A stretch of 64,000 nt of DNA from a virus. The notes beneath the pieces are model-generated. The model had not been told where the DNA came from, made no database searches, and saw only the letters and a program-made list of their open reading frames with translations. Shown here one piece after another: positions 30,601 to 55,430 of the stretch; positions within the stretch are counted from its first letter, which is position 1, and each line of letters opens with the position of its first letter. The translations under genes were made by a program, and so were the position numbers. The stretch is taken from positions 1 through 64,000 of IMG/VR virus record IMGVR_UViG_3300029448_000019; one strand, 5' to 3'.

Positions 30601-31253
30601 GCGAAGAAGGCCCGTTATCAATAGATAATCCTGCATATATGGCAGCAGCAGAAGTATTATCTGCAACAGCTAATATACCTCTCGATAGAGCTTTACGTAA
30701 ATTAGAAAATTTAAGGGCATCTGTTGATAGTGATACTGAAATGTGGCAACGTATATCTTTAATGTTAGGCTATAGTAAATGGGATGTTGGTATTATTCAA
30801 GAAGAAAGAAAACAAAAAAATATTGACAACGGGTTAAGAAGATATTTTGAAAAGCAATCTAAAATAAGACCAAATAAAAAAAGAAAAGATCCGGCGTCAA
30901 CTCTTGGAGGCTCTACTAGACGTAGCTCTAAATCAAGAGATAAAGCTTCAACACTTAATAAAGGTTTACCAAATGGTGTTTTAGGTAGAGCAAATAATGA
31001 TGGCACTATTGAAATAAAATCTGGTTTACCTAAAGCAAAAGAAAAAAAAGTTATTGCTCATGAAAAGCAACACATGCGTGATATGAAAGCTGGTAAATTA
31101 AATTATGATGATAATTTTGTTTATTGGAATAGCAGTAAATACAAACGAACAAACGATAATAAAATAGTTTATAATGGCAAAAAATTTCCTGAAGGGCATT
31201 CTAAATTACCATGGGAAGCGGTTGCTAATAAAGCAGAAAGAAAAGTAAGTTAA
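24609..31253 (+). CDS. Very large internal virion (ejection) protein with two HExxH motifs
   Basis: 2214 aa. It starts with a short beta unit (YIVDGVEYNVSPDREEQFLKDFPGA without the last residues), has a hydrophobic Gly/Ile stretch near residues 220-255, then a coiled coil at about 390-560. A gluzincin-like site lies at residues 622-626 (HEFLH, with AETRAEEV about 60 residues on as candidate third ligand). A long helical body follows, containing LAFANTPMQYTRLTKKAALDLIN near 1850 and a hydrophobic stretch ending ALQSAMFAMLF near 1905. A second HExxH (HEKQH) lies at 2151-2155, followed by WEAVANKAE at the end. Size and place match the giant core proteins injected by podoviruses. The proteases may process virion or host envelope proteins; activity is inferred. 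Confidence 0.65.
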   Translation: MIKVYIVDGVEYNVSPDREEQFLKDFPGAQLVEEENVEKTEPVAETTAPAAGRIDPTSTLSTGSQLEDGSLGSQDPAKGVFEQIFGKDIERQETYEEREARQELELQNKRQQVLNERGIDPNTGNPKELSSGEKMLNSFGNMVDQIQQFIPNLVISSNKFYRTIFGDEAVDAFVANKSIPEFFKEGLSEEDLDEAIQQQQLQEAEMKETGQIVEGFKEGDIGEIAAGIVNGVTSIGSSLAINYVTGGGGLIPDMIGRSYINYNDALAKEKDKTLSDLIKDKEDGVLVPATIGTISGILERLPLKGANKAAMNFAVKAGVNKTLSSVLISGSQEGITELTQTGLEAVNEAAAKGEDKSEAFFNAIGSQEGLESFLQGFVGGGVIGGKTRNILADKKDLLKASSVLKSKEISDDIDKNLNELAELREQEKLSKDKQVKNSIRKQIKEKENIIRDAQLEHNKILNNMTETEIYDASKISDDINKINNDIDNINAKFDNGLISESERDLVLEGLELDFQKNQDKLLKIKEDSIIRADEKIEKQTQTVKDDAAKLRKEGVKIEVKEFENTKETEEYILSKDKRKTKKSKIIAESADGTIYQNADGSQEIIINKEVARKTGAVNVAAHEFLHGVLYKTLKDNPDTAINLGQALAKEINKIDISKVKNSTFLRRLQLYKDKPAETRAEEVIALFADAVATGDIKYNENVFTKLGNVIRRILERFGVKKKFDTGKDVFNFIKDYNADISRGGVRQSIIQGAKEGFKGKLVTEPTGQSTATEKESRSNINSLLESYKGNKRTMIEQGFTKTPAGEETFIPFESEFGQSIGGLVESITKRIYDPIPEDLKKGQTRAEFRNDLVSEAATVIDREYDASKQDLGTFITNRLNLRANRIQKDLGVKQNIEADVTEAKNITTEAVTPEVQQIKKIAERLGVSDNIIDKAKKALDIAILNAQNKLKGTEKLSGKKRIAIRDKAINSIIDGKLYRDIQNEFGRNTSTSKSFTDYLNNNFEALRDAALKHINFQKGTGAALNWNTKAPSKQEFIDYYLAEGEKKSTRSDRKRKLAKAVGLEMSEQTRKDYIENNPVEAEKFTKETGIPLASLSFVNEFVQENNIPDKETYDLNLSLDEKTFKENLAKYIKDIQEIINLYNSGKLINKSMVQGFFTAQKPKDGTPEGKLFNYAKEELKKIKYGKGDEEIEGISLYSKEKVSNFIKRAFTAIGEGDVKGTDRILSIFKKDAFKDLIRAYNIRNSQQGLQFWTKANEIFQDPENKRLATAFAYLTSSSFEERSHPHSVMAEFTFIEKGIKGQKTIIEHAVPSNYAAKILSNALFDSPESFLKTFKNVKSQYKQGILKKSTDKIINQFSKLDMPDVDGRAYDINKDSYIVRYTSAIPDIKDQLIWIAGGTNDFDVKTPAEQNKLSKSLSTDFNRILEEVKGVPTRERFSEARASILGKKKNPFKFFVPYSAEDYMGLIYPTLGKGKIGDKNLEWYKKNIINPYAKGIRDFESDKQLALKSWEELKAQIKNTPAKLNKEAINDFTNENAIRIYLWAKQGVDFNDIGLSKKEVAAINRYVKSKPELKDFATQIQSLTPDGYPEPTGTDWLGGTITTDLVNYTNTVSRAKYLKEWQNNVDIVYSKDNMNKLKAIYGENYSDALQDMLYRMKTGRNRPSGGNKLTNQYLNWVNDSVGTIMFFNMRSAMLQTISSVNYLNWTDNNPINVAKTAANQKQFWSDFSEIFNSDFLKSRRSGLKTDVNADEIARSAETSKNKFRAGLSALLKKGFLPTQMADSFAISFGGASFYRNRINTYLKQGLNEKAAKEKAFLDFKEITEESQQSSRPDRVSMQQASPLGRVILAFANTPMQYTRLTKKAALDLINNRGDWKTNLSKLAYYGAVQNIIFTALQSAMFAMLFSDTDDDEEKEKIGRIGNGIADTLLRGSGVAGAAVATAKNMVLEAIRQYESGRPNYEKVANQITTLSPPINSKLRKLQSAGRAFTFKQNLEKIREEGPLSIDNPAYMAAAEVLSATANIPLDRALRKLENLRASVDSDTEMWQRISLMLGYSKWDVGIIQEERKQKNIDNGLRRYFEKQSKIRPNKKRKDPASTLGGSTRRSSKSRDKASTLNKGLPNGVLGRANNDGTIEIKSGLPKAKEKKVIAHEKQHMRDMKAGKLNYDDNFVYWNSSKYKRTNDNKIVYNGKKFPEGHSKLPWEAVANKAERKVS

Positions 31254-42084: not shown

Positions 42085-42816
42085 TTAAAGAGTTTTATTT
42101 ATATAGTATTGGCTTAAATCCATACCATCACCTGCAAAAAATTCATTATATGATTGTACAGCTTTAGCCACTTTATTTTGTCCTGATTGCAAAAACTCCT
42201 CACTACAATCGAACAAACCTAATTGATGTGTATTTTTATCTACAACAACAAATACAAGTTCATAACCAAACATTTTAGAATATATATAAGCTTGGCTATC
42301 ATAATTAAATTTATAAGCCGAGCTATGAAAAGAATTTATGTTACTAGTAGTTTTTAAATCTACCAAAAGCTGATTTGTATGATTTATTATATCAGCTTTA
42401 CCTTTCCATAATAACCCTTCTAAATCAATTATTCCGGGTTTTTCATATTCTATATTGCCTTCTTGTATAAGGTCTTTAAATAAATCTACACTCAATACTT
42501 TTTCTCTCATAAGTTGTATTTCATCTGCTTCTTTTTCTAACAAACAAATATCTCCTTCTGACAGTTCTTTATACATTTTAGTATTTCTACTTGATGATTC
42601 TATTATTTTATATTTATCTAACTTGTTAGGTTCCAATATACAAGTATGAAAATAACCTCCAATCACTAGTGCCGGACTGGGTTTTAACGGCTTTTTAAAC
42701 TCAAGAGGATTGTAAAGTAATGAACTAATATCACTATTTGATAAAAACTTTTTACCAAAATCACCATAATATTGTTCATCATCTCTGAGCTTTTCAATTA
42801 TTTCAGTTTTATCCAC
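42085..42816 (-). CDS. PD-(D/E)XK exonuclease (RecE/Cas4-like)
   Basis: 243 aa. The nuclease core is clear: H57 in GGYFHTCILEP, D142 in WKGKADII, D153-x-K155 in LLVDLKTT, and Q175-x-Y177 in YDSQAYIY. This order (H, D, DxK, QxxxY) matches the RecE/AddB/Cas4-like family. No cluster-forming cysteines are present, so it is RecE- rather than Cas4-type. It is encoded next to an ERF annealing protein, as in phage exonuclease/annealase pairs used in recombination and end repair. Confidence 0.8.
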   Translation of the reverse strand: MDKTEIIEKLRDDEQYYGDFGKKFLSNSDISSLLYNPLEFKKPLKPSPALVIGGYFHTCILEPNKLDKYKIIESSSRNTKMYKELSEGDICLLEKEADEIQLMREKVLSVDLFKDLIQEGNIEYEKPGIIDLEGLLWKGKADIINHTNQLLVDLKTTSNINSFHSSAYKFNYDSQAYIYSKMFGYELVFVVVDKNTHQLGLFDCSEEFLQSGQNKVAKAVQSYNEFFAGDGMDLSQYYINKTL

Positions 42817-43405
42817 TGACTAATTCAGCTCTTGCTTCTTTAGTTATTGTATATTTTTCTTCTAATGTTTTCATCATACCACCATTAGATAAAAACTTTC
42901 TAGCCTGATCTATATTCTTGTTGTCTATAACAGGTTTAGCAGAACTTTTACCTTTTGGTATTTCATTAAATTGTAATTTTTGTTTAATAGGCTGTTTGTC
43001 ATGTGTATTACTTCCGTCTGCATCAACAGTATCATCAATTAATAATAAATTACCTAAAGCATATTTTTTACCATACGATGATGCGCTACCAAATCTTTGT
43101 GGCATTTGTTGGCCTTTAGCATTAAGATCAACACCAACTATTGCGGTAGCATCAATAAAGTCATCTGACTCATTATCTACTATTGTAGCAGTTGAATGTA
43201 TGATAGGAAAATCAACGCCCATTACAGTTAAATTTTCTTTTACTGTAAAATGTACATTATATTTTTTATTATAAGGTTTTAATGCCTCTAATATATCTTC
43301 AGCTGATCTGAAGTTATACTTTCCAAATGAATTATATCTTGATTTTTTAGATTTAAATTCATTCTGTATCGTACTCAGTTTTTCTTTTAAGTTCATTAGA
43401 TTCAA
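42809..43405 (-). CDS. erf: ERF-family single-strand annealing protein
   Basis: 198 aa. The ERF signature is present: KYNFRSAEDILEALKPYNKKY, an HSTATIVD strand, then QQMPQRFGSASSYGKKYALGNLLLIDD, ending in DTVDAD. ERF proteins anneal complementary single strands, working here with the neighbouring exonuclease whose gene overlaps it by eight bases. The last 50 residues are a basic, partly helical tail. An in-frame ATG lies three codons inside the start. Confidence 0.85.
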   Translation of the reverse strand: MNLMNLKEKLSTIQNEFKSKKSRYNSFGKYNFRSAEDILEALKPYNKKYNVHFTVKENLTVMGVDFPIIHSTATIVDNESDDFIDATAIVGVDLNAKGQQMPQRFGSASSYGKKYALGNLLLIDDTVDADGSNTHDKQPIKQKLQFNEIPKGKSSAKPVIDNKNIDQARKFLSNGGMMKTLEEKYTITKEARAELVSG

Positions 43406-43505
43406 TTATTTTATAATTAACATAAATTCCATTTCTATAATAAGTAATAATACCATCACCTATTACGTATTCTGTGTTTTCATCTATACTATCACGTTCT
43501 TTCAT
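43359..43505 (-). CDS. Very small protein overlapping the erf start, uncertain
   Basis: 48 aa with ATG at 43505. Contains NTEYVIGDGIITYYRNGIYV, a plausible beta-hairpin. It overlaps erf by 47 bases, and the GTGATAGTA box of a promoter-like element lies inside its first codons, so a transcript from that promoter would lack its start. It could be expressed only from readthrough or may not be a gene. Confidence 0.3.
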   Translation of the reverse strand: MKERDSIDENTEYVIGDGIITYYRNGIYVNYKIIESNELKRKTEYDTE

Positions 43506-43521
43506 ATTTTGTAACGTACTT
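43487..43521 (-). promoter_or_regulatory. Phage promoter-like element, copy A
   Basis: Read on the minus strand: AAGTACGTTAC, 15 bases, GTGATAGTA. The right half deviates by one base from the other copies. The upstream gene stop at 43520 abuts it, and it points at erf, the exonuclease and the replication genes. Confidence 0.55.
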
Positions 43522-43855
43522 ACTTAAGTAAATCGTAGATAATACCTTTCTTTTTAAATAATCTACGATGCTTAATATCATGTGTCTTACCAAATATGGT
43601 GAATGCATCATTGTTTGATTCAACGTTTTTATAAATTTTTTTTTCAGTATTAACATTTTTACCTGATAATCTGTCTGTTTTAATAGCAATATATTTAGAG
43701 CCGGACACGGCTTTAACATGACTTGCAGTATAATTAGGGTTTTTAAAATTAAGATTTTGATCCTTATGAGAGGATTCAGAATTATCTCTTCTTATATATT
43801 GCATCTCATCTATAATAGACGGTACTAATTGATATTTAGTTTTAAATTTATTCAT
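43520..43855 (-). CDS. Basic protein, unknown
   Basis: 111 aa from ATG at 43855; the frame continues upstream into the sigma-like gene, but that extension looks like out-of-frame sequence of its neighbour. Lys/Asn-rich with KAVSGSKYIAIKTDRLSGKN and a basic end (GKTHDIKHRRLFKKKG). No family recognised; nucleic-acid binding is possible. Its stop abuts promoter-like copy A. Confidence 0.45.
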   Translation of the reverse strand: MNKFKTKYQLVPSIIDEMQYIRRDNSESSHKDQNLNFKNPNYTASHVKAVSGSKYIAIKTDRLSGKNVNTEKKIYKNVESNNDAFTIFGKTHDIKHRRLFKKKGIIYDLLK

Positions 43856-43898
43856 AAAGTACATAATAATTATAGTGCAAAATATAATATTTGGGACA

Positions 43899-44681
43899 TT
43901 AATCACGATAAATTTGTAAATGTTTTTCTGCAAAGTTATGGACTTCTGATGAACTGCGTATATCGTGTATAGCAACGAAATGTGCTAACTCTTTGAGTGC
44001 CTGCATGTTATTTTTTATTTTTATTAATAATCTTTGTTTTTGTTTTTTTACATTTTCCATTGGCATACTAAAAAATTTTGCTATCTCTGCTATCTTCTTA
44101 GGTTTGGAATAAATATCATCAATACCATATAACATCTTTAACATTAAATGATATTTAGGTAAATGCTTTCTGGCCCATTCATTTATATACTCACTTAATA
44201 TTTCATAATCATATTCATATATTTCTTCTTCAACCATATTAATTATATCAGTATCAAACCATTGAGGAAACAAAGCTGTAATATAACCAAATCCTCCGGA
44301 TATTCTTTTCTTTTCTTTATTATCCCATATACCTTTAACAGGTAGATTAACACCGTCTGCATCTTTTTTAATACGATCTCTTACAATACCCGTAATACTT
44401 TTTTTAAGATATTTAGATAAAGCTTTTTGTTTATCAACTTTATTTTTTATATCATTTATAATAGGCCATTTAATATTACGCCATGATATAAGTAAAGCCA
44501 AATAACCTTCCTGAGTTAAATCATTAAGGTCTAGTACACCAATTGCATTGTATTCTTTAGAAAAACTATTAGCAATATTAGATGCCATTTTATAATATTC
44601 AATAGGTATTTCATGTTGAGGTAAATGCAATGCAGTGTCCTGCATATTTAAAGAATATATTTTTTTATTAAAATTTTTCAT
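43899..44681 (-). CDS. Divergent sigma-70-like RNA polymerase sigma factor
   Basis: 260 aa. Region 2-like motif: DLNDLTQEGYLALLISW (about residues 51-67), matching the DLxQEGxxALxxA core-binding helix. LSKYLKKSITGIVRDRIKKDADGVNLPVKG (about 88-117) parallels the transition from region 2.4 to 3. Region 4-like helix-turn-helix: KPKKIAEIAKFFSMPMENVKKQKQRLLIKI near residues 194-223. The spacing is as in short sigma factors, but region 2.3 aromatic residues are poorly conserved. It would direct host RNA polymerase to phage promoters, perhaps later genes or the repeated element found here. Homology is clear by eye but distant. Confidence 0.65.
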   Translation of the reverse strand: MKNFNKKIYSLNMQDTALHLPQHEIPIEYYKMASNIANSFSKEYNAIGVLDLNDLTQEGYLALLISWRNIKWPIINDIKNKVDKQKALSKYLKKSITGIVRDRIKKDADGVNLPVKGIWDNKEKKRISGGFGYITALFPQWFDTDIINMVEEEIYEYDYEILSEYINEWARKHLPKYHLMLKMLYGIDDIYSKPKKIAEIAKFFSMPMENVKKQKQRLLIKIKNNMQALKELAHFVAIHDIRSSSEVHNFAEKHLQIYRD

Positions 44682-44782
44682 TTACGTTTTTTTCTAAAAG
44701 GCTTTTGTATTTCCTTTATTTTATCACGTATTTTAAAAATGTTATTCCTTATTAAATGTTTATATATCTGTAACCTGCTCAT
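44678..44782 (-). CDS. Tiny basic protein coupled to the sigma-like gene
   Basis: 34 aa (LQIYKHLIRNNIFKIRDKIK then KPFRKKRK), overlapping the sigma-like start as ATGA. It is strongly basic. It may be a small regulator or a leader peptide; not recognised. Confidence 0.35.
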   Translation of the reverse strand: MSRLQIYKHLIRNNIFKIRDKIKEIQKPFRKKRK

Positions 44783-44928
44783 AACCAATTAATTATAATA
44801 TTTATTGATATTAATATATTTGTAATGATAGCCTGCATTATTAATAATGTACGTACAAAGGCAACAGAGTCTGCATTATCTGTTGCTTTTTCTCCTAAAG
44901 CTTTAGCCCATATCCTCCAATACTTCAT
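44779..44928 (-). CDS. Small membrane protein of a common phage type
   Basis: 49 aa. The start KYWRIWAKALGEKATDNADSVAFVRT is a pattern I associate with small phage proteins, followed by a hydrophobic helix (LLIMQAIITNILISINIII). Its ends overlap both neighbours by four bases (ATGA). The function of this type is unknown to me. Confidence 0.55.
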   Translation of the reverse strand: MKYWRIWAKALGEKATDNADSVAFVRTLLIMQAIITNILISINIIINWL

Positions 44929-45086
44929 ATAACATCATTCATATTGCATTCATCAAACCATTCCCATTCCGTATATAGAGGAAATTGAGCTAAAAGTTTG
45001 TTTATAATATCTTCTTGTACATGCAAAGATACATCGGTATTTATTAAATATACCTCGTTTTGTATAACAATTTTACCTAAGCTCAT
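44925..45086 (-). CDS. Small acidic protein, unknown
   Basis: 53 aa; contains GKIVIQNEVYLINTDVSLHV and an aromatic, acidic end (LYTEWEWFDECNMNDV). ATGA overlaps with both neighbours support translation. No family recognised. Confidence 0.45.
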   Translation of the reverse strand: MSLGKIVIQNEVYLINTDVSLHVQEDIINKLLAQFPLYTEWEWFDECNMNDVI

Positions 45087-45301
45087 GCAAAGTTATATTG
45101 TTTTTTAATTTTATGATTAAAGAATTTGCCAATAGATTCACTGTATTTCATAGAAATAAATGTATCTGATGGTACTTTAAAATACATATATTCTTTACCA
45201 TAATTAAACTTAACTGTTAATGTGTTAAGGTCATAATCATATACCATATGATTTATTGCTTGCGAATCGACTTCTAATTTTTCTGTAATATATTTTCTCA
45301 T
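45083..45301 (-). CDS. KTSC-domain protein
   Basis: 72 aa. The body matches the KTSC domain, named from lysyl-tRNA synthetase C-termini: SQAINHMVYDYDLNTLTVKF, then GKEYMYFKVPSDTFISMKYSESIGKFFN without the last residues. Stand-alone KTSC proteins are common in phages and are thought to bind RNA or nucleic acid. No other domain is present. Confidence 0.7.
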   Translation of the reverse strand: MRKYITEKLEVDSQAINHMVYDYDLNTLTVKFNYGKEYMYFKVPSDTFISMKYSESIGKFFNHKIKKQYNFA

Positions 45302-45305
45302 AATT

Positions 45306-45644
45306 TTAATTTATTAATTTTAATTTAACATTTTTCCATTTACCATATTTCATTTCTTTATTAACTAAGAAATCAATACGCATATCCCAGCGTTTATTCA
45401 TTCTATCTTGCACCTGCCATTCGCCATCCATATCAGCACCAGCACCTTCAACTAATACACAAGCACCAAACGTAAAGCCAAGTGCTTCTAAATCGCGCGA
45501 AACAGCTATCCATCTGTGTTTTGCAGGATTTATACTATCTATAACTTGATTAGATGCAGTTATAAATGGTGTTGAGTCTGTTTGTTTAGGATCAGCATGA
45601 TATATTGTGGCTGTTACTAAAATTGTGTATAGCAATATTTTCAT
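45306..45644 (-). CDS. Secreted 3D/double-psi-barrel domain protein
   Basis: 112 aa. A short hydrophobic leader (MKILLYTILVT) is followed by ATIYHADPKQTDSTPFITAS, then RWIAVSRDLEALGFTFGACV and GEWQVQDRMNKRWDMRIDFLV. This is the strand and Asp pattern of the 3D domain/RlpA double-psi beta-barrel (TA-x-Y start, IAVSRDL, D near VQDRMN and D in RIDF). Related domains act on peptidoglycan. Its presence among replication genes rather than lysis genes is unusual; it may remodel the wall or block later phages. Confidence 0.6.
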   Translation of the reverse strand: MKILLYTILVTATIYHADPKQTDSTPFITASNQVIDSINPAKHRWIAVSRDLEALGFTFGACVLVEGAGADMDGEWQVQDRMNKRWDMRIDFLVNKEMKYGKWKNVKLKLIN

Positions 45645-45931
45645 AATTTATCTATTTCTTTTTTTATTTTTTCGTATATTTCTTTAAGCTCAACTAATAA
45701 TTCATACTTTTCATCTTCTAATAACTCTTGCCATTTTTCATCAAGCTGTTGTAATTGAGCAAGTAATATATCTTTTTTACTTACATGCTTAACATTACCA
45801 AATATGTCAATTGAATGATGAAATTCTTCAGGTGTTGCTGCTTGGTATCTTTCAGCTATTCGCTTATCAAACTCATCCATAATTTTTTGAGTTATAAGTT
45901 CTGCTAATTGTTCCAATTGATCTTGTGTCAT
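45641..45931 (-). CDS. Acidic coiled-coil protein, unknown
   Basis: 96 aa, Glu/Lys/Gln/Leu-rich helices (DQLEQLAELITQKIMDEF; LLAQLQQLDEKWQELL) with a short non-helical middle (HSIDIFGNVKHV). It may oligomerise. It overlaps the 3D-domain gene by four bases. Confidence 0.5.
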   Translation of the reverse strand: MTQDQLEQLAELITQKIMDEFDKRIAERYQAATPEEFHHSIDIFGNVKHVSKKDILLAQLQQLDEKWQELLEDEKYELLVELKEIYEKIKKEIDKL

Positions 45932-46185
45932 ATTGTTGTAAGTTTTTCGGCCATATAAACAGAATATGGTGTACCAAATCCGTGATCAATTAATTTAGCT
46001 ATTTTATTCCACACCCTTAAATCTCGTATAGAACCTTTAACACTAATATAATGTAGTTCAGGGTATCTTTGATTGTGTCTTGTTCTAAATTCATTTCTTA
46101 ATTGTAATCTATAATGTGCAATTTTAGCAATAAGCATAGATTCAATACGACCATCAATATATTCGTTATCAAACTTGTTTTTCAT
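45928..46185 (-). CDS. Small basic protein, unknown
   Basis: 85 aa with RIESMLIAKIAHYRLQLRNEF, followed by KGSIRDLRVWNKIAKLIDHGFGTPYSV without membrane segments. The second half could be a helix-hairpin. Overlaps both neighbours. Confidence 0.45.
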   Translation of the reverse strand: MKNKFDNEYIDGRIESMLIAKIAHYRLQLRNEFRTRHNQRYPELHYISVKGSIRDLRVWNKIAKLIDHGFGTPYSVYMAEKLTTI

Positions 46186-46318
46186 ATTGTAAATTTTTAA
46201 TATAATTTTCAGCTAATGTTTTATTATCAAAATCCTCATAGCCACCCCTAAGTCCTTTATTATCAGACCATAACACACGAAATTGATTATTAATTGTTTG
46301 TTTTATTTTAGTCTTCAT
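46169..46318 (-). CDS. Very small protein, unknown
   Basis: 49 aa from ATG at 46318; an ATG at 46384 is in frame but would overlap the upstream gene more. Contains INNQFRVLWSDNKGLRGGY followed by a helix with NKTLAENYIKNLQ. No family recognised. Confidence 0.4.
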   Translation of the reverse strand: MKTKIKQTINNQFRVLWSDNKGLRGGYEDFDNKTLAENYIKNLQYEKQV

Positions 46319-46637
46319 CTTCGTCAATATTATAATTATCTTCAAGCCATTCTTTAATCTCGTCTTCAGGCAATCTTTCTTCAAGATCAGCTATATATAC
46401 TATTGCACCACCGTTTTTTGATACTTCATCTAATCTATATAAAATATCTTCAGCGCTTGGTTCATAATAATATACATCATTTTCCCAATCAATATTACTA
46501 GGATCGTTTGTCATAACATATATATCATAGTTATCAGCTGTATAATATGTGCTTACTTCTAAGTCATACGCACTTAATTTATAATCTTGCTCAATTGTAA
46601 TATTAAGTTTTTCTTCTAATAATTTGTAATAATTCAT
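46308..46637 (-). CDS. Highly acidic small protein (possible DNA mimic or inhibitor)
   Basis: 109 aa, very rich in Asp, Glu and Tyr (YYEPSAEDILYRLDEV; DEIKEWLEDNYNIDEDED). Phage acidic proteins of this size are often inhibitors or DNA mimics, but there is no specific match. It overlaps the next gene by 11 bases. Confidence 0.45.
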   Translation of the reverse strand: MNYYKLLEEKLNITIEQDYKLSAYDLEVSTYYTADNYDIYVMTNDPSNIDWENDVYYYEPSAEDILYRLDEVSKNGGAIVYIADLEERLPEDEIKEWLEDNYNIDEDED

Positions 46638-46672
46638 TTGTTTTTAATTTAAAATTAATATGTGTATAGCAA

Positions 46673-46900
46673 TTATGCTTCTACTGTTTCAGCTTCAACA
46701 TTTATATTATCTACTTTGTTAATATTTTCATATACTTTAATAGTTAAGTATTTAATAATGTCATCAGCTTCAAAGCCGTCTTTTAATAGTTGAGGAATTA
46801 TTTTATCAAATGCATATCTTATTTGCCATTCAGCATCTGATACTGTTTCAACTCTGTCAATTAATGTTTTAATTTCTAAGTAATCTTGTAAGTTTTTCAT
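46673..46900 (-). CDS. Small acidic protein, unknown
   Basis: 75 aa, helical and acidic (DYLEIKTLIDRVETV; FDKIIPQLLKDGFEADDIIKYL). It begins 18 bases downstream of promoter-like copy B, with no gene between, so it is probably the first gene of that transcript. Confidence 0.5.
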   Translation of the reverse strand: MKNLQDYLEIKTLIDRVETVSDAEWQIRYAFDKIIPQLLKDGFEADDIIKYLTIKVYENINKVDNINVEAETVEA

Positions 46901-46917
46901 TTTATTTTATTTTATTA

Positions 46918-46952
46918 TATTATCACTATTAGTTTTGTTTTGTAACGTACTT
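46918..46952 (-). promoter_or_regulatory. Phage promoter-like element, copy B
   Basis: Minus strand: AAGTACGTTAC, 15 bases, GTGATAATA. It overlaps the last codons of the DnaA-like gene and reads toward the 75-aa acidic protein. Confidence 0.65.
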
Positions 46953-47414
46953 CTTATCATTTATTATATCATTAAGTTTTGTTCTTAACGTATTAGAATA
47001 TTTATATTCCATTTGTTCAAGCTTACTAATACATTCTTTAGTATAATTATAAAGCTTTTTGTTTTGTAATAATTTAACTCTATATTTATTTCTATAAAAT
47101 TTATCAGGGTCATAGCTTTTAACTTCTAATGATATTTTAGTTTTTATATGATCTTTTATATTTAAATAAACATCAAACAATTCTTTTTCCCAAAAGTTAT
47201 CGATTATATTATTAAATATTTTAAGGCCATGTAATACAGTAGCATGATCTTTATTAACATGCTTTCCAATTGCATCTAATGATTCACTTGTAAAATCTTT
47301 ACAAAGTTTATAATATATACTTCTTATATAAACAATTTCTCGTTTACGTGATTCTACATCTATAAAAGTATTAAATGCACTCTCCACTGCTTCTTTAATT
47401 ATTTTACTATTCAT
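46929..47414 (-). CDS. Stand-alone DnaA domain-IV-like DNA-binding protein
   Basis: 161 aa. Residues about 22-70 match the DNA-binding domain of replication initiator DnaA: an Arg/Lys start (ESRKREIVYIRSIYYKL), SLDAIGKHVNKDHATVLHG, with DHATVLHG (56-63) corresponding to the DHTTVLHA signature that reads the DnaA box. The AAA+ ATPase, domain I and domain II are absent. The rest is a basic helical region. It may bind phage or host origin-like sites, as initiator, repressor or host-replication inhibitor. A promoter-like element covers its last codons. Confidence 0.7.
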   Translation of the reverse strand: MNSKIIKEAVESAFNTFIDVESRKREIVYIRSIYYKLCKDFTSESLDAIGKHVNKDHATVLHGLKIFNNIIDNFWEKELFDVYLNIKDHIKTKISLEVKSYDPDKFYRNKYRVKLLQNKKLYNYTKECISKLEQMEYKYSNTLRTKLNDIINDKKYVTKQN

Positions 47415-47562
47415 TTTCTTTCCACCATTTTATATTATCTTCAGGACGATATTCACTTTCGTTCCTTTTATGTTTTTTACCTTCGCTTGCTCTAGGAATT
47501 CTAAAGCCTACAACTGGGTTGATACCTAGATCCCACCAATTATCTGGTAATTTTTTTGTCAT
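47407..47562 (-). CDS. Small polar protein, unknown
   Basis: 51 aa with PDNWWDLGINPVVGFRIPRA and a charged second half ending in IKWWKENE. Overlaps the DnaA-like gene by eight bases. The WWDLG and FRIPR pieces look like a short folded motif. Not recognised. Confidence 0.4.
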   Translation of the reverse strand: MTKKLPDNWWDLGINPVVGFRIPRASEGKKHKRNESEYRPEDNIKWWKENE

Positions 47563-47747
47563 AATGTTTCTTTTAATTTTTTAATTAATTTATATTTAAT
47601 ATCTGATATTGTTTCATTAAAATAATCGTCTTCTAATTCTTCAATGTCAGTTCCGTCTATTTCCCACAATATCATGCGGTCAATACCTACATTTACAACT
47701 TTAACTAAGTTGTTTGCAATTTCATCTAAGTCACTTGTTTTGTTCAT
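47559..47747 (-). CDS. Small acidic protein, unknown
   Basis: 62 aa, helical ends and a central WEIDGTDIEELEDDYFNETI. Four-base overlaps with both neighbours. Not recognised. Confidence 0.45.
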   Translation of the reverse strand: MNKTSDLDEIANNLVKVVNVGIDRMILWEIDGTDIEELEDDYFNETISDIKYKLIKKLKETL

Positions 47748-47941
47748 ACGATTTCAAGGTTAAGTTCTTGCGCTACATAGTTAATGTGCTTAGAAGTTGT
47801 TGGGCTTGATGTCATACCATATACATTCCATTTAAGTTTGTATAATTTGCCATCTTTAATTTCAGCAACATGAGTATCATATGAATATATGTCGTTGCCA
47901 ATTTGTTTTAAGTTTACTTTATATTTGTCAAATGTTTTCAT
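47744..47941 (-). CDS. Small conserved-type phage protein (DUF8033-like)
   Basis: 65 aa. IYSYDTHVAEIKDGKLYKL followed by TTSKHINYVAQELNLEIV is a pattern I have seen in many phage small proteins (YSYxTxVAxI then TTSKHINYVA), which I associate with DUF8033. The function of this type is unknown. Confidence 0.55.
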   Translation of the reverse strand: MKTFDKYKVNLKQIGNDIYSYDTHVAEIKDGKLYKLKWNVYGMTSSPTTSKHINYVAQELNLEIV

Positions 47942-47947
47942 GTTATT

Positions 47948-48097
47948 TTATTTTATGTTAAAACATATTTTATTATATATTTTTATTAATTCTTCTATTT
48001 GTTTTGTTGATTTTACATTACGATTTTTTTCATCAATTAAAAAGTTTTCAAGTGATACTAGAATAATTAAATTTTGGTTGTGTGTTAATTTTTTCAT
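47948..48097 (-). CDS. Very small protein, unknown
   Basis: 49 aa, Asn/Lys/Ile-rich and helical (NLIILVSLENFLIDEKN; KQIEELIKIYNKI). One base separates it from the upstream gene. Not recognised. Confidence 0.4.
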   Translation of the reverse strand: MKKLTHNQNLIILVSLENFLIDEKNRNVKSTKQIEELIKIYNKICFNIK

Positions 48098-48098
48098 T

Positions 48099-48272
48099 TT
48101 ATTTATATTCTTGTATTAATTTATTTATATCTTTTAAGTTTGAAAAATGATAATGGTATATAACTTCTTTTTTATAGTTAAATACTGTAAAATCATACAT
48201 TTTAAATTTTGGTGAATAATATATTTGAAATGATGTTTGTGATTTTGGTTTGTTGTTAAAGTATTTATTCAT
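48099..48272 (-). CDS. Very small basic protein, unknown
   Basis: 57 aa, Lys/Tyr/Phe-rich (TSFQIYYSPKFKMYDFTVF then a helix), start 16 bases downstream of promoter-like copy C with no gene between. It probably leads that transcript. Confidence 0.4.
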   Translation of the reverse strand: MNKYFNNKPKSQTSFQIYYSPKFKMYDFTVFNYKKEVIYHYHFSNLKDINKLIQEYK

Positions 48273-48287
48273 GTTGTTATTTTAATA

Positions 48288-48322
48288 TATTATCACATTA
48301 TAATTTAATTTGTAACGTACTT
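48288..48322 (-). promoter_or_regulatory. Phage promoter-like element, copy C
   Basis: Minus strand: AAGTACGTTAC, 15 bases, GTGATAATA. It sits in the gap between the genes ending at 48321 and starting at 48272. Confidence 0.7.
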
Positions 48323-48488
48323 ATCCTATTAATTCTAATTGTTTTTTAATTTGTTTTAAAGCTTTGTGACTTGCTTTTGCATTTTGCCAAATGGCATAAT
48401 CTGGGCCGAATGTTTCTAGTAAATGTATAGCAACTTTTGCCGTTAATAACATTTTATTTGCTTCTTTACTTGTTATTTCTTTTGTCAT
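48321..48488 (-). CDS. Small helical protein, unknown
   Basis: 55 aa, helical (KEANKMLLTAKVAIHLLETF; WQNAKASHKALKQIKKQ). Its stop abuts promoter-like copy C. It overlaps the next upstream gene by 23 bases. Confidence 0.45.
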   Translation of the reverse strand: MTKEITSKEANKMLLTAKVAIHLLETFGPDYAIWQNAKASHKALKQIKKQLELIG

Positions 48489-48645
48489 ATCTTTTATTTT
48501 TTTTATCGTCTAAATACATTTTATAATCTTGTAGAACTAAAGCAAATTCTTTGTTTAAATCTTTTAAATCATAATCAAATGATGAGGTTTTCATCCAGTG
48601 TGCGATAGATTCTAATGTTTCGATTGCTGTTTCTTTATGTGTCAT
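48466..48645 (-). CDS. Small protein, unknown
   Basis: 59 aa, helical with KETAIETLESIAHWMKTSSF and a basic end (DDKKNKRYDKRN). No family recognised. Confidence 0.45.
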   Translation of the reverse strand: MTHKETAIETLESIAHWMKTSSFDYDLKDLNKEFALVLQDYKMYLDDKKNKRYDKRNNK

Positions 48646-48646
48646 A

Positions 48647-48844
48647 TTATTTATTTAGGTTTTGAAATCTATAATGTTTTATTGTATTTAAACTTGCTTT
48701 AGTAAATTGATCTACACGCTTTTTATATTGTTTATCTAAGCAATATTTTTTTATTGCTCTAGATTTAGTACATTCACCATACTTTTTTTCAAATTCTTCA
48801 ATTTGTTTTAACTTATCATTAATCATTTGCTTTGTTAATTTCAT
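48647..48844 (-). CDS. Small basic protein, unknown
   Basis: 65 aa, Lys-rich helices (KQMINDKLKQIEEFEKKYG; YCLDKQYKKRVDQFTKAS). A nucleic-acid-binding role is possible from charge. Confidence 0.45.
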   Translation of the reverse strand: MKLTKQMINDKLKQIEEFEKKYGECTKSRAIKKYCLDKQYKKRVDQFTKASLNTIKHYRFQNLNK

Positions 48845-49026
48845 AATTTTATATTATTTACTGATTCTTTTATTCTATTTAATTCATTTTCAAAATATGA
48901 TTTGATTGGTTTTGATTCAAAATGATCGGAATATAATTTTAAGTTTGATACAATACCTTCTATTCTTCCAAGCATTTTTGCATTTTCCATATTTATTTCT
49001 AATCTTTCTATATAATCTTTATTCAT
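48841..49026 (-). CDS. Small helical protein, unknown
   Basis: 61 aa, helical (RLEINMENAKMLGRIEGIV; IKSYFENELNRIKESV), ATGA overlap with the downstream gene. Not recognised. Confidence 0.45.
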   Translation of the reverse strand: MNKDYIERLEINMENAKMLGRIEGIVSNLKLYSDHFESKPIKSYFENELNRIKESVNNIKL

Positions 49027-49186
49027 AATTATTCATATTTAATATTTCATCTGTTTTATTTACTATTATATTTCTTATATGTTCTCTGTGTCTATAGTCT
49101 AAACTATCAAATCCGTCACAGTCAAATGTATTTTTACTTAATTCATGTAATAATACTCCAAGTTCAAGGTAAAATCTTTTTGTCAT
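49019..49186 (-). CDS. Small protein, unknown
   Basis: 55 aa, FYLELGVLLHELSKNTFDCD then a basic middle (YRHREHIRNIIVNK). Its start lies 27 bases downstream of promoter-like copy D, so it probably leads that transcript. Confidence 0.45.
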   Translation of the reverse strand: MTKRFYLELGVLLHELSKNTFDCDGFDSLDYRHREHIRNIIVNKTDEILNMNNYE

Positions 49187-49212
49187 TTTATTATATTTTA
49201 TTTATTTTATTA

Positions 49213-49247
49213 TATTATCACTTTAATATTTATTTTGTGACGTACTT
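49213..49247 (-). promoter_or_regulatory. Phage promoter-like element, copy D
   Basis: Minus strand: AAGTACGTCAC, 15 bases, GTGATAATA. It lies in a 73-base intergenic gap. Confidence 0.7.
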
Positions 49248-49259
49248 ATTTTTTTATTA

Positions 49260-49481
49260 TTATAAATTATTTAATATAGTTTCAGTTATATTTTTTTTGT
49301 TTATAAAAGAAAAACCTTTTAAATTAAATTCTATTATATTTGGATTTTTGTGATAAAATTTAAAGTTTAATAAATCTGTTAATTTAAATCCAATATAATT
49401 TGATTTTAACAGGGTTAATTTTTTATGTGAAATTGTTTTAGATTTATAATGATTTGTTGATAAGTTTTTTAAATTTGACAT
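49260..49481 (-). CDS. Small basic protein, unknown
   Basis: 73 aa, Lys/Asn/Ile-rich (NLSTNHYKSKTISHKKLTLLK; FKLTDLLNFKFYHKNPNIIE). It starts 28 bases downstream of promoter-like copy E and ends 13 bases before copy D, a single-gene unit. Base composition is extremely AT-rich, so some doubt remains. Confidence 0.4.
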   Translation of the reverse strand: MSNLKNLSTNHYKSKTISHKKLTLLKSNYIGFKLTDLLNFKFYHKNPNIIEFNLKGFSFINKKNITETILNNL

Positions 49482-49508
49482 TTTATATATTTTTATTAGT
49501 TACATTTA

Positions 49509-49543
49509 TATTATCACTTTTATTTTTATTTTGTGACGTACTT
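49509..49543 (-). promoter_or_regulatory. Phage promoter-like element, copy E
   Basis: Minus strand: AAGTACGTCAC, 15 bases, GTGATAATA, followed by TATAAATGTAACTA, a downstream stretch shared with copy F. Confidence 0.7.
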
Positions 49544-49545
49544 TT

Positions 49546-49722
49546 TTATTTATTTAATTTTATAATTTCATTTTCACAAATTTCTATTTCATTTTTTATT
49601 TTATTAATATGTTCTATTTTATTAGTGTTTTTAAATTTATTAAATTGTTTTAACATTTCTTTTTTTCTAGAATTATAAAATTTTATTTTATTTTCTTTTG
49701 TAAATGTATTTGGAAATCTCAT
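49546..49722 (-). CDS. Small basic protein, first gene of the leftward block
   Basis: 58 aa, Lys/Asn/Ile-rich helix (KENKIKFYNSRKKEMLKQF; KIKNEIEICENEIIKL). It starts 29 bases downstream of promoter-like copy F and would be among the first genes expressed. Not recognised. Confidence 0.4.
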   Translation of the reverse strand: MRFPNTFTKENKIKFYNSRKKEMLKQFNKFKNTNKIEHINKIKNEIEICENEIIKLNK

Positions 49723-49750
49723 ATTTATTATTTTTAATTAGTTACATTTA

Positions 49751-49785
49751 TATTATCACATTATAATAGGATTTGTAACGTACTT
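49751..49785 (-). promoter_or_regulatory. Phage promoter-like element, copy F
   Basis: Minus strand: AAGTACGTTAC, 15 bases, GTGATAATA, followed by TATAAATGTAACTA. It lies upstream of all recognisable leftward genes. Confidence 0.7.
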
Positions 49786-50062
49786 TATATAAATTATTAA
49801 ATATTCAATACAAAATGTCCCTTTTTAATAATATTGCACTATAATATAATATATACTATTAATAATTTAATAAAGTAGTAACTTCATTGAATATATGATA
49901 ATAATTAATATTATATAAATTAAGTACTAAGATTCATTAATGTAAAATTATTATATATACAGTAATAGTGTTGAATCTTTGAACATATCACAACAATAGT
50001 GTTAAAATATTGATAATATGACAGTATTTTTCCCCTAACTCTAATAATAATGCAATGTACTG

Positions 50063-50093
50063 ACTATCAACACATTAAGTTTGCGACGTACTT
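50063..50093 (-). promoter_or_regulatory. Variant promoter-like element, copy G
   Basis: Minus strand: AAGTACGTCGC followed by a shorter spacer and TTGATAGTC. The left box is well conserved, but the gap is three bases shorter than in copies A-F, so activity is less certain. Confidence 0.4.
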
Positions 50094-50101
50094 TGCTATA
50101 C

Positions 50102-50159
50102 ATGACAAAACGGAAAATCCGCTGCATTATATTCGGTAAAATGTACGTTTTATTGTCAT
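50102..50159. repeat. Imperfect inverted repeat in the divergent region
   Basis: ATGACAAAACG at 50102-50112 mirrors CGTTTTATTGTCAT at 50146-50159 with three extra bases in the right arm. The intervening 33 bases contain a small CGGA/TCCG hairpin beginning at the end of the left arm. It could be a protein-binding operator or part of an origin. Confidence 0.4.
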
Positions 50160-50204
50160 ATGTGCGGGCCTTTTTATATTGGTTTTCCTAAAACGCTGAT
50201 ACTC

Positions 50205-50237
50205 AATACGTTACGTGTAATACAAAACCTATATATA
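50205..50237 (+). promoter_or_regulatory. Possible rightward promoter
   Basis: AATACGTTAC resembles the left box of the leftward promoters, and TATATA lies 17 bases after CGTTAC, the same spacing as CGTTAC to GATAAT in copies B, C and F. It precedes the ATG at 50262 by about 24 bases. Only one copy, weak second box. Confidence 0.3.
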
Positions 50238-50261
50238 TCTAACCAATTTGAATCAAATACA

Positions 50262-50432
50262 ATGAGTAAAGACTATACCCACATTAAAGCCAATGGTATC
50301 CGAAACGAGCTAAAAGAGATACGTAAGGCTGTGGACAAACTAACTGCTGCTATGATTGAGATACATCTAGCACAAACAAACACACAAGATGAAACAGATA
50401 ATACTAAGTTGTGCACTTGCAATTCTGACTAG
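50262..50432 (+). CDS. Small helical protein, unknown
   Basis: 56 aa from ATG at 50262; an in-frame ATG at 50160 would run through the promoter region and is unlikely. Contains YTHIKANGIRNELKEIRKAVDKLTAAMIEI, a probable helix pair or coiled coil, and a polar tail. First rightward gene. Confidence 0.5.
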   Translation: MSKDYTHIKANGIRNELKEIRKAVDKLTAAMIEIHLAQTNTQDETDNTKLCTCNSD

Positions 50433-50595
50433 TTGTGCAACATCGAAGAAAACGACGTATGAAATAAAATACGAAGAGTTTAAAGATATAACTAAGGACG
50501 TGTGCGACACAAACCCAGTTGAGGTTACCCTAGCACAGCACTTATATAATGAACTAAAACAATATAAAAGAAATGAACGCAAGCTTTTTAACTAA
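50389..50595 (+). CDS. Small predicted lipoprotein
   Basis: 68 aa. MKQIILSCALAILTSCATSKK is a lipoprotein signal with lipobox LTSC, so the mature protein would start at Cys16 and be about 53 aa. The rest is charged and helical. It overlaps the preceding gene by 44 bases in another frame. It might be an outer-membrane spanin subunit or a superinfection-exclusion lipoprotein; neither is proven. Confidence 0.55.
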   Translation: MKQIILSCALAILTSCATSKKTTYEIKYEEFKDITKDVCDTNPVEVTLAQHLYNELKQYKRNERKLFN

Positions 50596-50722
50596 GCATT
50601 CACCTTTAACTAAGAAGGATGCGTGCTATCACAAGGCTAAAGCCAAATACGATGTATTCCCCTCTGCTTATGCATCGGGATATATTGCTAAGTGCCGTAA
50701 GCGCGGCGGTAAAATGAAATAA
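50573..50722 (+). CDS. Small basic protein with FPSAYASG motif
   Basis: 49 aa. KKDACYHKAKAKYDVFPSAY followed by ASGYIAKCRKRGGKMK is a pattern I recall in many phages and some giant viruses (FPSAYASG..xKCR). Two Cys and many Lys/Arg suggest DNA or RNA binding. It is the first of a run of such proteins. Confidence 0.55.
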   Translation: MNASFLTKHSPLTKKDACYHKAKAKYDVFPSAYASGYIAKCRKRGGKMK

Positions 50723-50743
50723 TAACTATTAAATAATAAAGAT

Positions 50744-50866
50744 ATGCCAGGTACTAAGAAAATGGGAATGTATAAAAAACATAAGACTGCTAAGGGAATG
50801 CCTAAGAAAAAAGGGATGACTAAGAAAAAAGGTATGCCAAAAATGCACGGTAAAAAGAAAAAATAA
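50744..50866 (+). CDS. Lys/Met/Gly-repeat basic peptide
   Basis: 40 aa, nearly half Lys, with KGMPKKKGMTKKKGMP repeats and no acidic residue. Its stop overlaps the next start as TAATG. It probably binds nucleic acid and might help DNA condensation. Confidence 0.45.
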   Translation: MPGTKKMGMYKKHKTAKGMPKKKGMTKKKGMPKMHGKKKK

Positions 50867-51402
50867 TGAGAAATTCACTACAAGAAAGAAAAAAAAGAAA
50901 CAAAGCTTCTATTTCTGCGGCAAACGCAAATAATATAAATGCAAGAAAAAGAAAGATGCGAGGTATTTCAACCCCCGAAGATAAAGCAAACGAAAAAGCC
51001 AGTGCTTCGGCAGGCATGAAACCGGCTGAAATAGAAAAAAAAGAAGATAATACTTTACAAAAGTCTATGTTATATAAAATGGATTCAATGGCATATAAGA
51101 TGGAAGATTCTTCTCCTATAGTAAAACATTCAGGTATAGGGCCTGCAAATTTAGGTGGCCCGGGTATGAAATCTCACGTGCATGCATGCGGCACTCCTAA
51201 AAAATCTAGTGGTTTAAATGACGGGCACTCACCTATGGAATTTAATGATAAGCTAGAAAAAGCTGTAGACGACGGTAAAATTACTGGAGAATTTGCGGAA
51301 GCAGTTAAAGGAGGCATGCCTAAAATGGAAGCAGGTTCAATAACTATGAAACCTGAATCTGATGTTGAAAAATACAGAAAGCTAGATATTAAAGAATCTT
51401 AA
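50866..51402 (+). CDS. Basic, partly disordered protein, unknown
   Basis: 178 aa. A Lys/Arg-rich N-terminal third (LQERKKRNKASISAANAN) is followed by a Gly/Pro/His segment (GIGPANLGGPGMKSHVHACG, which has His-x-His-x-Cys) and an acidic-basic end with DDGKITGEFAEAVKGG. It may be a virion DNA-associated protein by context. Not recognised. Confidence 0.5.
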   Translation: MRNSLQERKKRNKASISAANANNINARKRKMRGISTPEDKANEKASASAGMKPAEIEKKEDNTLQKSMLYKMDSMAYKMEDSSPIVKHSGIGPANLGGPGMKSHVHACGTPKKSSGLNDGHSPMEFNDKLEKAVDDGKITGEFAEAVKGGMPKMEAGSITMKPESDVEKYRKLDIKES

Positions 51403-51404
51403 TA

Positions 51405-51572
51405 ATGGCAGATAAGAAAGTTAAAGCACCTGCCGGGTACCATTGGATGAAAAAGGGAGCGGGGTATAAATTAATGAAGCATGCGGGTAAATTTGTAAAA
51501 CACCCCGGGGCTTCTTTATATGCTTCTTTCGGAATTCAAACAGCACACAAGCGTGGCAGTAAGAAAAACTAA
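51405..51572 (+). CDS. Small basic protein with HWMKKG...YKLM motif
   Basis: 55 aa. APAGYHWMKKGAGYKLMKHAGKF then a basic end (IQTAHKRGSKKN). I recall such small basic proteins next to similar genes in other marine phages. Function unknown; charge suggests nucleic-acid binding. Confidence 0.45.
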   Translation: MADKKVKAPAGYHWMKKGAGYKLMKHAGKFVKHPGASLYASFGIQTAHKRGSKKN

Positions 51573-51849
51573 AAAAGGATTAGCACTTAAACGTTGGTTT
51601 AAAGAAAAGTGGACCGACGAAAAAGGTAATGTTTGCGGTTCACGTAAAAATAAAAATACTAAAAAATGCAGGCCCTCAAAAAGAGTGTCCGGCAAAACAG
51701 TAAAAACTTGGAGTGAGATGTCCTCCTCTGAAAAGCGAAAAGCAGTAGCTGAGAAAAAAAGAGTAGGAATGGGAAGAAAGACTTCTCAGATAAGAAGAAA
51801 AACTACTAAAGCAAAAAAAAATGTTACTTCCAAAAAACGGCGTGGCTAA
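51553..51849 (+). CDS. Arg/Lys-rich protein, DUF5872-like
   Basis: 98 aa from GTG at 51553; an ATG at 51520 in the same frame would add 11 residues and overlap the previous gene more, and the choice is open. LKRWFKEKWTDEKGNVCGS, KCRPSKRVS and AEKKRVGMGRKTSQIRRKTT match a protein type I associate with DUF5872, found in large viruses and phages. Very basic with two Cys. Likely a DNA-binding or packaging protein. Confidence 0.5.
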   Translation: MAVRKTKKGLALKRWFKEKWTDEKGNVCGSRKNKNTKKCRPSKRVSGKTVKTWSEMSSSEKRKAVAEKKRVGMGRKTSQIRRKTTKAKKNVTSKKRRG

Positions 51850-55073: not shown

Positions 55074-55430
55074 ATGGCAATATTAACAGTTACACCAACA
55101 GTAAGTTCTACAACAGGAGAAGTAACTTATACTGCATCTGACCCAGGCAATGGTGATATAATAACAGGTGTTGTTTTAAGAGACTTTATGTCTAACGGAC
55201 CTACCAAAAAAGCTGACGGCACATATGAAACTGATGTAGCTAAATTAGTATACGATGTAAAAGTAAGACCTAATAGCGTTACTGCAGTTATGACAATAAC
55301 TAAATCGGGTGCAGATTACCCTATAATCATGTTAAAAGCTCCTGAAGGATTACAGCAAGAATACAAATGGGCTACTAGTGACGTTATTAAAGTTAACGCT
55401 GTAGTTGCTGCACTTATAACTAACGGATAA
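55074..55430 (+). CDS. Small beta-rich structural-type protein
   Basis: 118 aa, Thr/Val/Ala-rich beta strands (ILTVTPTVSSTTGEVTYT; YDVKVRPNSVTAVMTITK), no enzyme motif. Placed at the beginning of the fibre series. Possibly a decoration or fibre accessory protein. Confidence 0.5.
   Translation: MAILTVTPTVSSTTGEVTYTASDPGNGDIITGVVLRDFMSNGPTKKADGTYETDVAKLVYDVKVRPNSVTAVMTITKSGADYPIIMLKAPEGLQQEYKWATSDVIKVNAVVAALITNG

What the first reader, a model, noticed from the sequence alone, without database searches (positions are those of the whole stretch)
43487..49785. A family of at least six 35-bp promoter-like elements driving the leftward block
Copies A-F (43487, 46918, 48288, 49213, 49509, 49751) share AAGTACGTYAC, exactly 15 bp, then GTGATAATA when read on the minus strand (copy A has GTGATAGTA). 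CGTYAC and GATAAT are thus 17 bp apart, the spacing of a -35/-10 promoter. The spacer bases differ, so it is the boxes that are conserved. All lie at gene ends or gaps and point into the genes. The -10 resembles sigma-70 (TATAAT), not the usual Bacteroidota TAnnTTTG. Four copies lie in the first 1.5 kb of the block, as expected for strong early promoters or for binding sites of a phage regulator.
Basis: partly seen in the sequence, partly recalled or inferred. Interest (0 to 1): 0.75.

Follow-up and report, generated by a model that had tools for sequence, protein, structure and literature searches.

The report
Conserved early promoters of marine flavophages
A repeated two-part DNA signal, always with exactly 15 bases between its halves, sits in front of the early genes of an uncultured group of ocean viruses that infect Flavobacteria-type bacteria; it is very probably their early promoter, and it pairs with a second, late promoter type that changes together with the virus's own sigma factor.

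Summary
Six copies exist, all on the minus strand (0.07 expected), and no further full copy was found in the 68-kb record. The same element occurs about 90 times in some 35 related viral records, on one strand per record, with the spacer always exactly 15 bp. Start codons usually follow 16-29 bp after the right box. "Promoter-like, driving the leftward block" is therefore well supported, though untested by RNA. Two reader details fail. The DnaA-like protein has no homologue in relatives. The window's sigma-like protein (43899-44681) very probably reads a different element, class II, found here: one site heads the rightward block 30 bp from copy F, and one lies at the sigma stop codon. Class II has two versions that follow the sigma clade (10/10 and 14/14 loci), while class I is unchanged. 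In two other genomes the class I left box switched in all copies while class II stayed. Relatives lacking class I show the host box TAHHTTTG upstream of genes; the class I clade does not. So class I appears to replace host-type early promoters. Its reader is unknown: host RNA polymerase, perhaps with a helper, is most likely.

The parts
43487..43521 (-). Class I element, copy A (GTGATAGTA variant); overlaps the 5' end of ORF 43359-43505, upstream of the Erf-like gene 42809-43396
   Evidence: counterpart in L083 with the ATG also inside the spacer; ORF translated
46918..46952 (-). Class I element, copy B, 18 bp before the start of ORF 46673-46900
48288..48322 (-). Class I element, copy C, 16 bp before the start of ORF 48099-48272
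49213..49247 (-). Class I element, copy D, before ORF 49019-49186
   Evidence: ORF translated
49509..49543 (-). Class I element, copy E, before ORF 49260-49481
   Evidence: ORF, conserved in relatives
49751..49785 (-). Class I element, copy F, first of the leftward block, before ORF 49546-49722
49815..49845 (+). Class IIa element ATGTCCC-N10-TATTGCACTATAAT, head-to-head with copy F, pointing into the rightward block; inferred late promoter read by the phage sigma factor
   Evidence: same place in G001, G003, G004, G006, G007, G037, G040
43869..43899 (-). Second class IIa element ATGTCCC-N10-TTTTGCACTATAAT, overlapping the stop codon of the sigma gene; precedes a gene whose ATG is at 43864 or 43855
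   Evidence: a class II element stands at this place in all 24 sigma loci examined
43899..44681 (-). Phage sigma-70-family factor (regions 2 and 4), inferred reader of class II
   Evidence: PHROG 351 E 2.8e-7; Sigma70_r4 and Sigma70_r2 in clade members; profile hit to SigA, E 4.5e-9; low-confidence model (pLDDT 71.5) whose best weak Foldseek matches are sigma chains

Best explanation
The six elements (class I) are the early promoters of an uncultured marine flavophage clade distantly related to crAss-like phages. Each is a rigid two-box promoter, RTACGTYACAAA-N12-GTGATAATATAA, that starts transcripts about 6-12 bases after GTGATAATA, just before the next gene. Because the genome shows no RNA polymerase of its own and no enrichment of host-type promoters, class I is most likely read at the onset of infection by host RNA polymerase, with the right box as the -10 region and the left box contacted by a second determinant (a host alternative sigma or activator, or a phage protein). 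The leftward transcripts include the phage sigma-factor gene. That sigma then directs host core polymerase to class II promoters: one fires the rightward structural block and one fires the gene behind sigma. Shown by sequence: the elements, their strictness, strand, position, conservation, and the co-variation of class II with sigma.
For: Six copies against 0.07 expected. About 90 distinct copies in some 35 records, one strand per record. In anchored scans that left the gap free, 80 of 97 left-box sites have a perfect right box at gap 15, and 86 of 99 right-box sites have the left box with at most one mismatch at gap 15. In most of 83 usable sites the first ATG opening an ORF falls at positions 49-62 of the element (right box 25-33), peaking at 57-60. 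Class I upstream of genes: 23 sense, 0 antisense. Copies that overlap coding sequence keep the DNA motif, even when the left box switches. RNA folding of the element is only marginally below shuffles (mean z -0.4). Host box TAHHTTTG: 52 against 5-12 for permuted boxes in relatives lacking class I, 20 against 9-23 in the class I clade. Sigma to class II: clade A 10/10 followed by class IIa, clade B 14/14 by class IIb, while primase, RNR and TerL stay about 75-88% identical between the clades and sigma drops to about 30%. Seven genomes searched whole show two class II sites at syntenic places.
Against: No transcript data exist for any of these phages. The class I boxes do not match the known Flavobacterium sigma-A consensus (TAHHTTTG, PMC6847099), so recognition by host polymerase is by elimination. 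Such strict conservation and spacing is more typical of promoters read by a dedicated phage factor. In G037 and G040 all class I left boxes changed together, which also suggests a specific, possibly phage-encoded, left-box reader. A virion-delivered factor of unknown fold cannot be excluded. Some copies overlap ORFs whose ATG lies upstream of the right box. No candidate left-box reader emerged from the phyletic table.
Confidence: 0.6

Rival explanations
1. Class I elements are promoters read by a phage-encoded factor (a sigma, activator or polymerase component not recognised by sequence) that enters with the virion, so the phage does not depend on host promoter specificity even at the start.
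For: Near-invariant boxes and fixed spacing; coordinated left-box switch in G037 and G040; no enrichment of host-type boxes in the clade; several large structural or possible ejected proteins without function.
Against: No RNA-polymerase motif (DxDGD) or family match in the large proteins scanned; no protein with a phyletic pattern matching class I and its switched form.
Confidence: 0.25
2. The window's own sigma factor reads class I; class I would then be a middle promoter class.
For: The sigma gene lies in the same block, downstream of copies B-F, which would allow positive feedback.
Against: Class I is identical in genomes whose sigma is only about 30% identical, and its left box changed in genomes whose sigma and class II did not. 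Class II, not class I, tracks the sigma clade in 24 of 24 loci.
Confidence: 0.05
3. Class I is a binding site for a regulator (operator or stoperator) or an RNA-level element rather than a promoter.
For: The relative MW202828 carries a different repeated early-block element, a 16-bp perfect palindrome, so early genes of this wider group can carry operator-like repeats. Some copies overlap coding sequence.
Against: The element is asymmetric, always in one orientation, at a fairly constant distance before start codons, with -35/-10-like spacing. RNA structure is negligible. No other promoter class was found in the early block upstream of the sigma gene.
Confidence: 0.08
4. Coincidental repeats in an A+T-rich genome.
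For: None beyond base composition.
Against: 0.07 expected; reversed-pattern controls gave one match each, against 28, about 70 and 11 real ones; conserved across many independently assembled records.
Confidence: 0.005

Closest known systems
phiEco32 and 7-11 phages (PMC8948821): host sigma-70 early promoters plus a phage sigma factor for middle/late promoters
   Same: A phage sigma factor of which distant versions read different promoter sequences placed at corresponding genome positions; early genes depend on host polymerase; oppositely directed gene blocks.
   Different: There the early promoters are read by the host sigma-70 holoenzyme; here class I looks unlike the host consensus and is almost invariant. 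Class II is two-box in both sigma clades and always stands at the sigma stop codon. The phages and hosts are unrelated.
Bacteroidota sigma-A promoters (TTTG / TAnnTTTG; PMC6847099, PMC9723704)
   Same: AT-rich -10 region; short leaders; no Shine-Dalgarno sequence expected. TATAAnTG in class I shares T-12, A-11, T-6 and G-5 in many copies if aligned that way.
   Different: Class I lacks T-8 and T-7, lacks a -33 TTTG, has strong extra boxes and a fixed 15-bp spacing.
crAss-like phages with virion RNA polymerase
   Same: The window has a crAss-type muzzle protein, and its terminase has homologues in Cellulophaga phages of this wider group.
   Different: No virion RNA polymerase was recognised here; early transcription appears to rest on class I promoters instead.
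T7-type conserved phage promoters (own knowledge)
   Same: Near-identical copies in front of phage genes, rigid geometry.
   Different: No single-subunit RNA polymerase was found in the proteins scanned; two separated boxes rather than one continuous 23-bp site.

Membership tests
Phage promoter family (any reader) | Recurrent, one-directional, at gene starts | tested here: met
Phage promoter family (any reader) | Transcript starts downstream of the element | not testable with these tools
   No RNA data for these uncultured phages
Sigma-70-type -35/-10 promoter | Two boxes separated by about 15-19 bp, AT-rich downstream box | tested here: met
   15 bp between RTACGTYAC and GTGATAATA, fixed in about 90 copies
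Host Bacteroidota sigma-A promoter | TAnnTTTG -7 box with -33 TTTG | tested here: not met
   Class I logo; host box not enriched in this clade but enriched in relatives
phiEco32/7-11-like sigma-factor switch | Phage-encoded sigma-70-family protein | tested here: met
   weak structural support
phiEco32/7-11-like sigma-factor switch | Late promoters specific for that sigma | tested here: inconclusive
   Class II co-varies perfectly with sigma clade, but sites within a clade are related and recognition was not assayed
phiEco32/7-11-like sigma-factor switch | Early genes transcribed by the host holoenzyme | not testable with these tools
   Needs in vitro transcription or host reporter assays
crAss-like virion RNA polymerase system | Virion RNA polymerase with DxDGD catalytic motif | tested here: not met
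   no motif or family match in the large proteins scanned
DnaA-type binding sites | Cognate DnaA-domain protein present wherever the sites are | tested here: not met
   The DnaA_C-like protein is found only in the window genome

The most novel reading that the evidence does not exclude
A phage clade that has given up host-consensus promoters: its genes run from a near-invariant early promoter read by an unrecognised, virion-delivered specificity factor, then from late promoters whose sequence is exchanged as a module together with the cognate sigma factor.
Probability: 0.2. Interest if true: 0.85.

Novelty: new variant of a known kind. Interest (0 to 1): 0.6.

Why it matters
Early promoters of phages of Bacteroidota are little known, and the host consensus differs strongly from that of E. 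coli. This clade gives a compact, testable transcription programme (class I early, sigma, class II late), a natural series of sigma factors with their probable promoters that could serve as orthogonal sigma/promoter pairs, and motifs that mark early and late blocks in uncultured marine phage contigs.

Tried and rejected
RNA hairpin or processing element: folding of the element is only marginally below shuffles. Iteron or DnaA-box reading: asymmetric, one orientation, and the DnaA-like protein is not conserved. Palindromic operator: arms match at only 3-4 of 12 positions by eye. Virion RNA polymerase: none recognised. Host regulon: a scan of 84,980 bacterial and archaeal species found only three contigs; two of them carry marker genes of this phage clade. 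Class I in cultured phages: no convincing match, and neither sigma has a homologue in 50,697 phage records. Phyletic search for a left-box reader: no candidate. De novo gapped-motif search in elemo, Panino, phi38:1 and phi13:2 gave no class I-like family; the reversed control in that script was uninformative. GCTATAC-type 9-mers are over-represented but lie mostly in coding sequence and show no promoter pattern. Literature search for the motifs found nothing relevant.

Full report
OBSERVATION. Shuffled sequence gives 0.07 matches on average. The record is a 68,154-base viral contig. A weight matrix built from relatives finds these six (scores 39.5-50.1) and nothing else above 12.7. Copies B-F end 16-29 bp before a minus-strand start codon; copy A lies over the first codons of a 48-aa ORF. 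The statement that only the boxes are conserved needs correction: AAA follows the left box, and TATAA, often nTG, continues the right box.

CONSERVATION. A scan of IMG/VR with the exact pattern gave 7 further contigs and a slightly relaxed one gave 35 stretches. Searching whole records, matches lie on one strand per record; the reversed-pattern control gave one match in each of the two searches. Pooled copies number about 90 distinct sequences; two of the records (L069/L090) hold an identical match that looks like coding sequence and is probably chance, and were set aside in later counts. Because that pattern fixes the boxes, I anchored on one box and left the gap free: 80 of 97 left-box sites have a perfect right box at exactly 15 bp, and 86 of 99 right-box sites have the left box with at most one mismatch at exactly 15 bp. 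The first ATG that opens an ORF falls mostly at positions 49-62, with a peak at 57-60, where the right box is 25-33. Class I is absent from the relatives elemo, Panino and MW202828, and no convincing match exists in the phage collection.

WHAT THE PHAGE IS. The terminase is 62% identical to MW202828 and 46% to Flavobacterium elemo phages, with homologues in Cellulophaga, Maribacter and Tenacibaculum phages. A crAss-type muzzle protein is present. The leftward block carries ribonucleotide reductase, thymidylate synthase, primase-helicase, Erf, an exonuclease and a sigma-like protein; the rightward block carries GroEL and structural genes. A Flavobacteriia host is inferred. No RNA polymerase was recognised in the large proteins scanned; the smaller ones were not all scanned.

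THE SIGMA FACTOR AND A SECOND PROMOTER CLASS. The 260-aa protein at 43899-44681 belongs to the sigma-70 family by profile. The predicted structure is of modest confidence (pLDDT 71.5), and its best Foldseek matches are sigma chains but with weak E-values. A second element, ATGTCCC-N10-TWTTGCACTATAAT (class IIa), occurs twice in the window genome: at 49815 (+), 30 bp from copy F and pointing right, and at 43899 (-), overlapping the sigma stop codon. In relatives with a sigma only about 30% identical (clade B), both places hold a different element, TATAC-N10-TTTTATGTAATATATATTATA (class IIb). Wider searches gave 10 clade A loci, all with IIa behind sigma, and 14 clade B loci, all with IIb. The Fisher value (5e-7) ignores shared ancestry and overstates the case, since loci within a clade are related. 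The two sigma families are homologous. Of the genomes searched whole that have a sigma gene, G000, G002, G003, G005, G009, G037 and G040 each show two class II sites at the two syntenic places; the pattern missed the second site of G030, which one search shows in diverged form at L118, and only the sigma-side site was found in G024. Portal and capsid genes also separate the two clades, while primase and RNR do not, so the late module and its sigma seem to have been exchanged together.

DOUBLE DISSOCIATION. Class I is the same in both sigma clades. Conversely, G037 and G040 (clade A sigma, class IIa) have the left box GTACACWACAAA in all 4-5 copies, with the right box and spacing unchanged. So class I and class II vary independently, which argues against the window's sigma as reader of class I. 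The DnaA-like protein is ruled out by its absence from relatives.

RELATION TO HOST PROMOTERS. The Flavobacterium consensus is TAHHTTTG with a weak -33 element (PMC6847099; PMC9723704). Upstream of genes it is enriched in relatives lacking class I (52 against 5-12 for permuted boxes) but not in the class I clade (20 against 9-23). Gene calls were simple longest-ORF calls, and genomes within each group are related, so this is indicative. It suggests that class I took over the role of host-type promoters.

MECHANISM. The best reading is an early promoter (class I), then sigma, then a late promoter (class II). Early timing rests on gene content, position at the head of the replication block, and the absence of any other promoter class at the head of that block. 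Host polymerase, perhaps helped at the left box, is favoured because something must act before phage proteins are made; a virion-delivered factor is the main rival. The nearest precedent is the phiEco32/7-11 group, in which distant phage sigma factors read different promoters at similar genome positions (PMC8948821). I found no report of these motifs.

Noticed in passing
MW202828 (L096/L101), 43747-51770 plus one at 55156: A 16-bp perfect palindrome GTGTCGTTAACGACAC occurs 14 times, many copies just before start codons of the early block; possibly an operator family. Other copies lie inside genes.
   Followed up: partly
L066:1967, L089:2502, L077:5289, L093:7288, L070:8052, L078:8694, L091:10320: In some relatives class I elements are followed by a conserved, apparently non-coding leader (..GAGTTTTATAAAA..TTGCCTC..), possibly a small RNA.
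   Followed up: no
window 50060-50093 (-): A look-alike AAGTACGTCGCAAA...TTGATAGT with a 12-bp spacer, conserved in G006 at 47825, in a conserved non-coding region between the two blocks.
   Followed up: partly
whole clade, e.g. window 45634 (-), 46671 (-): The 8-mer CTATACAC/GTGTATAG is over-represented (32 against 12 expected), mostly in coding sequence and in different frames.
   Followed up: no
window 24609-31253 (+): A 2214-aa protein at the end of the structural block has an HEFLH metallopeptidase-like motif and no family match; perhaps an ejected protein.
   Followed up: no
window 46929-47414 (-): A protein with a DnaA C-terminal DNA-binding domain (Pfam E 3.8e-12), not found in the relatives examined.
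   Followed up: partly
L093, L094 (MED657, labelled Rickettsiales), L095 (labelled Flavobacteriales): Bacterial MAG contigs bearing class I; L093 carries this clade's GroEL, and L094 carries its sigma, Erf and primase-helicase, so these look like misbinned phage contigs. L095 gave no match to the genes tested.
   Followed up: partly
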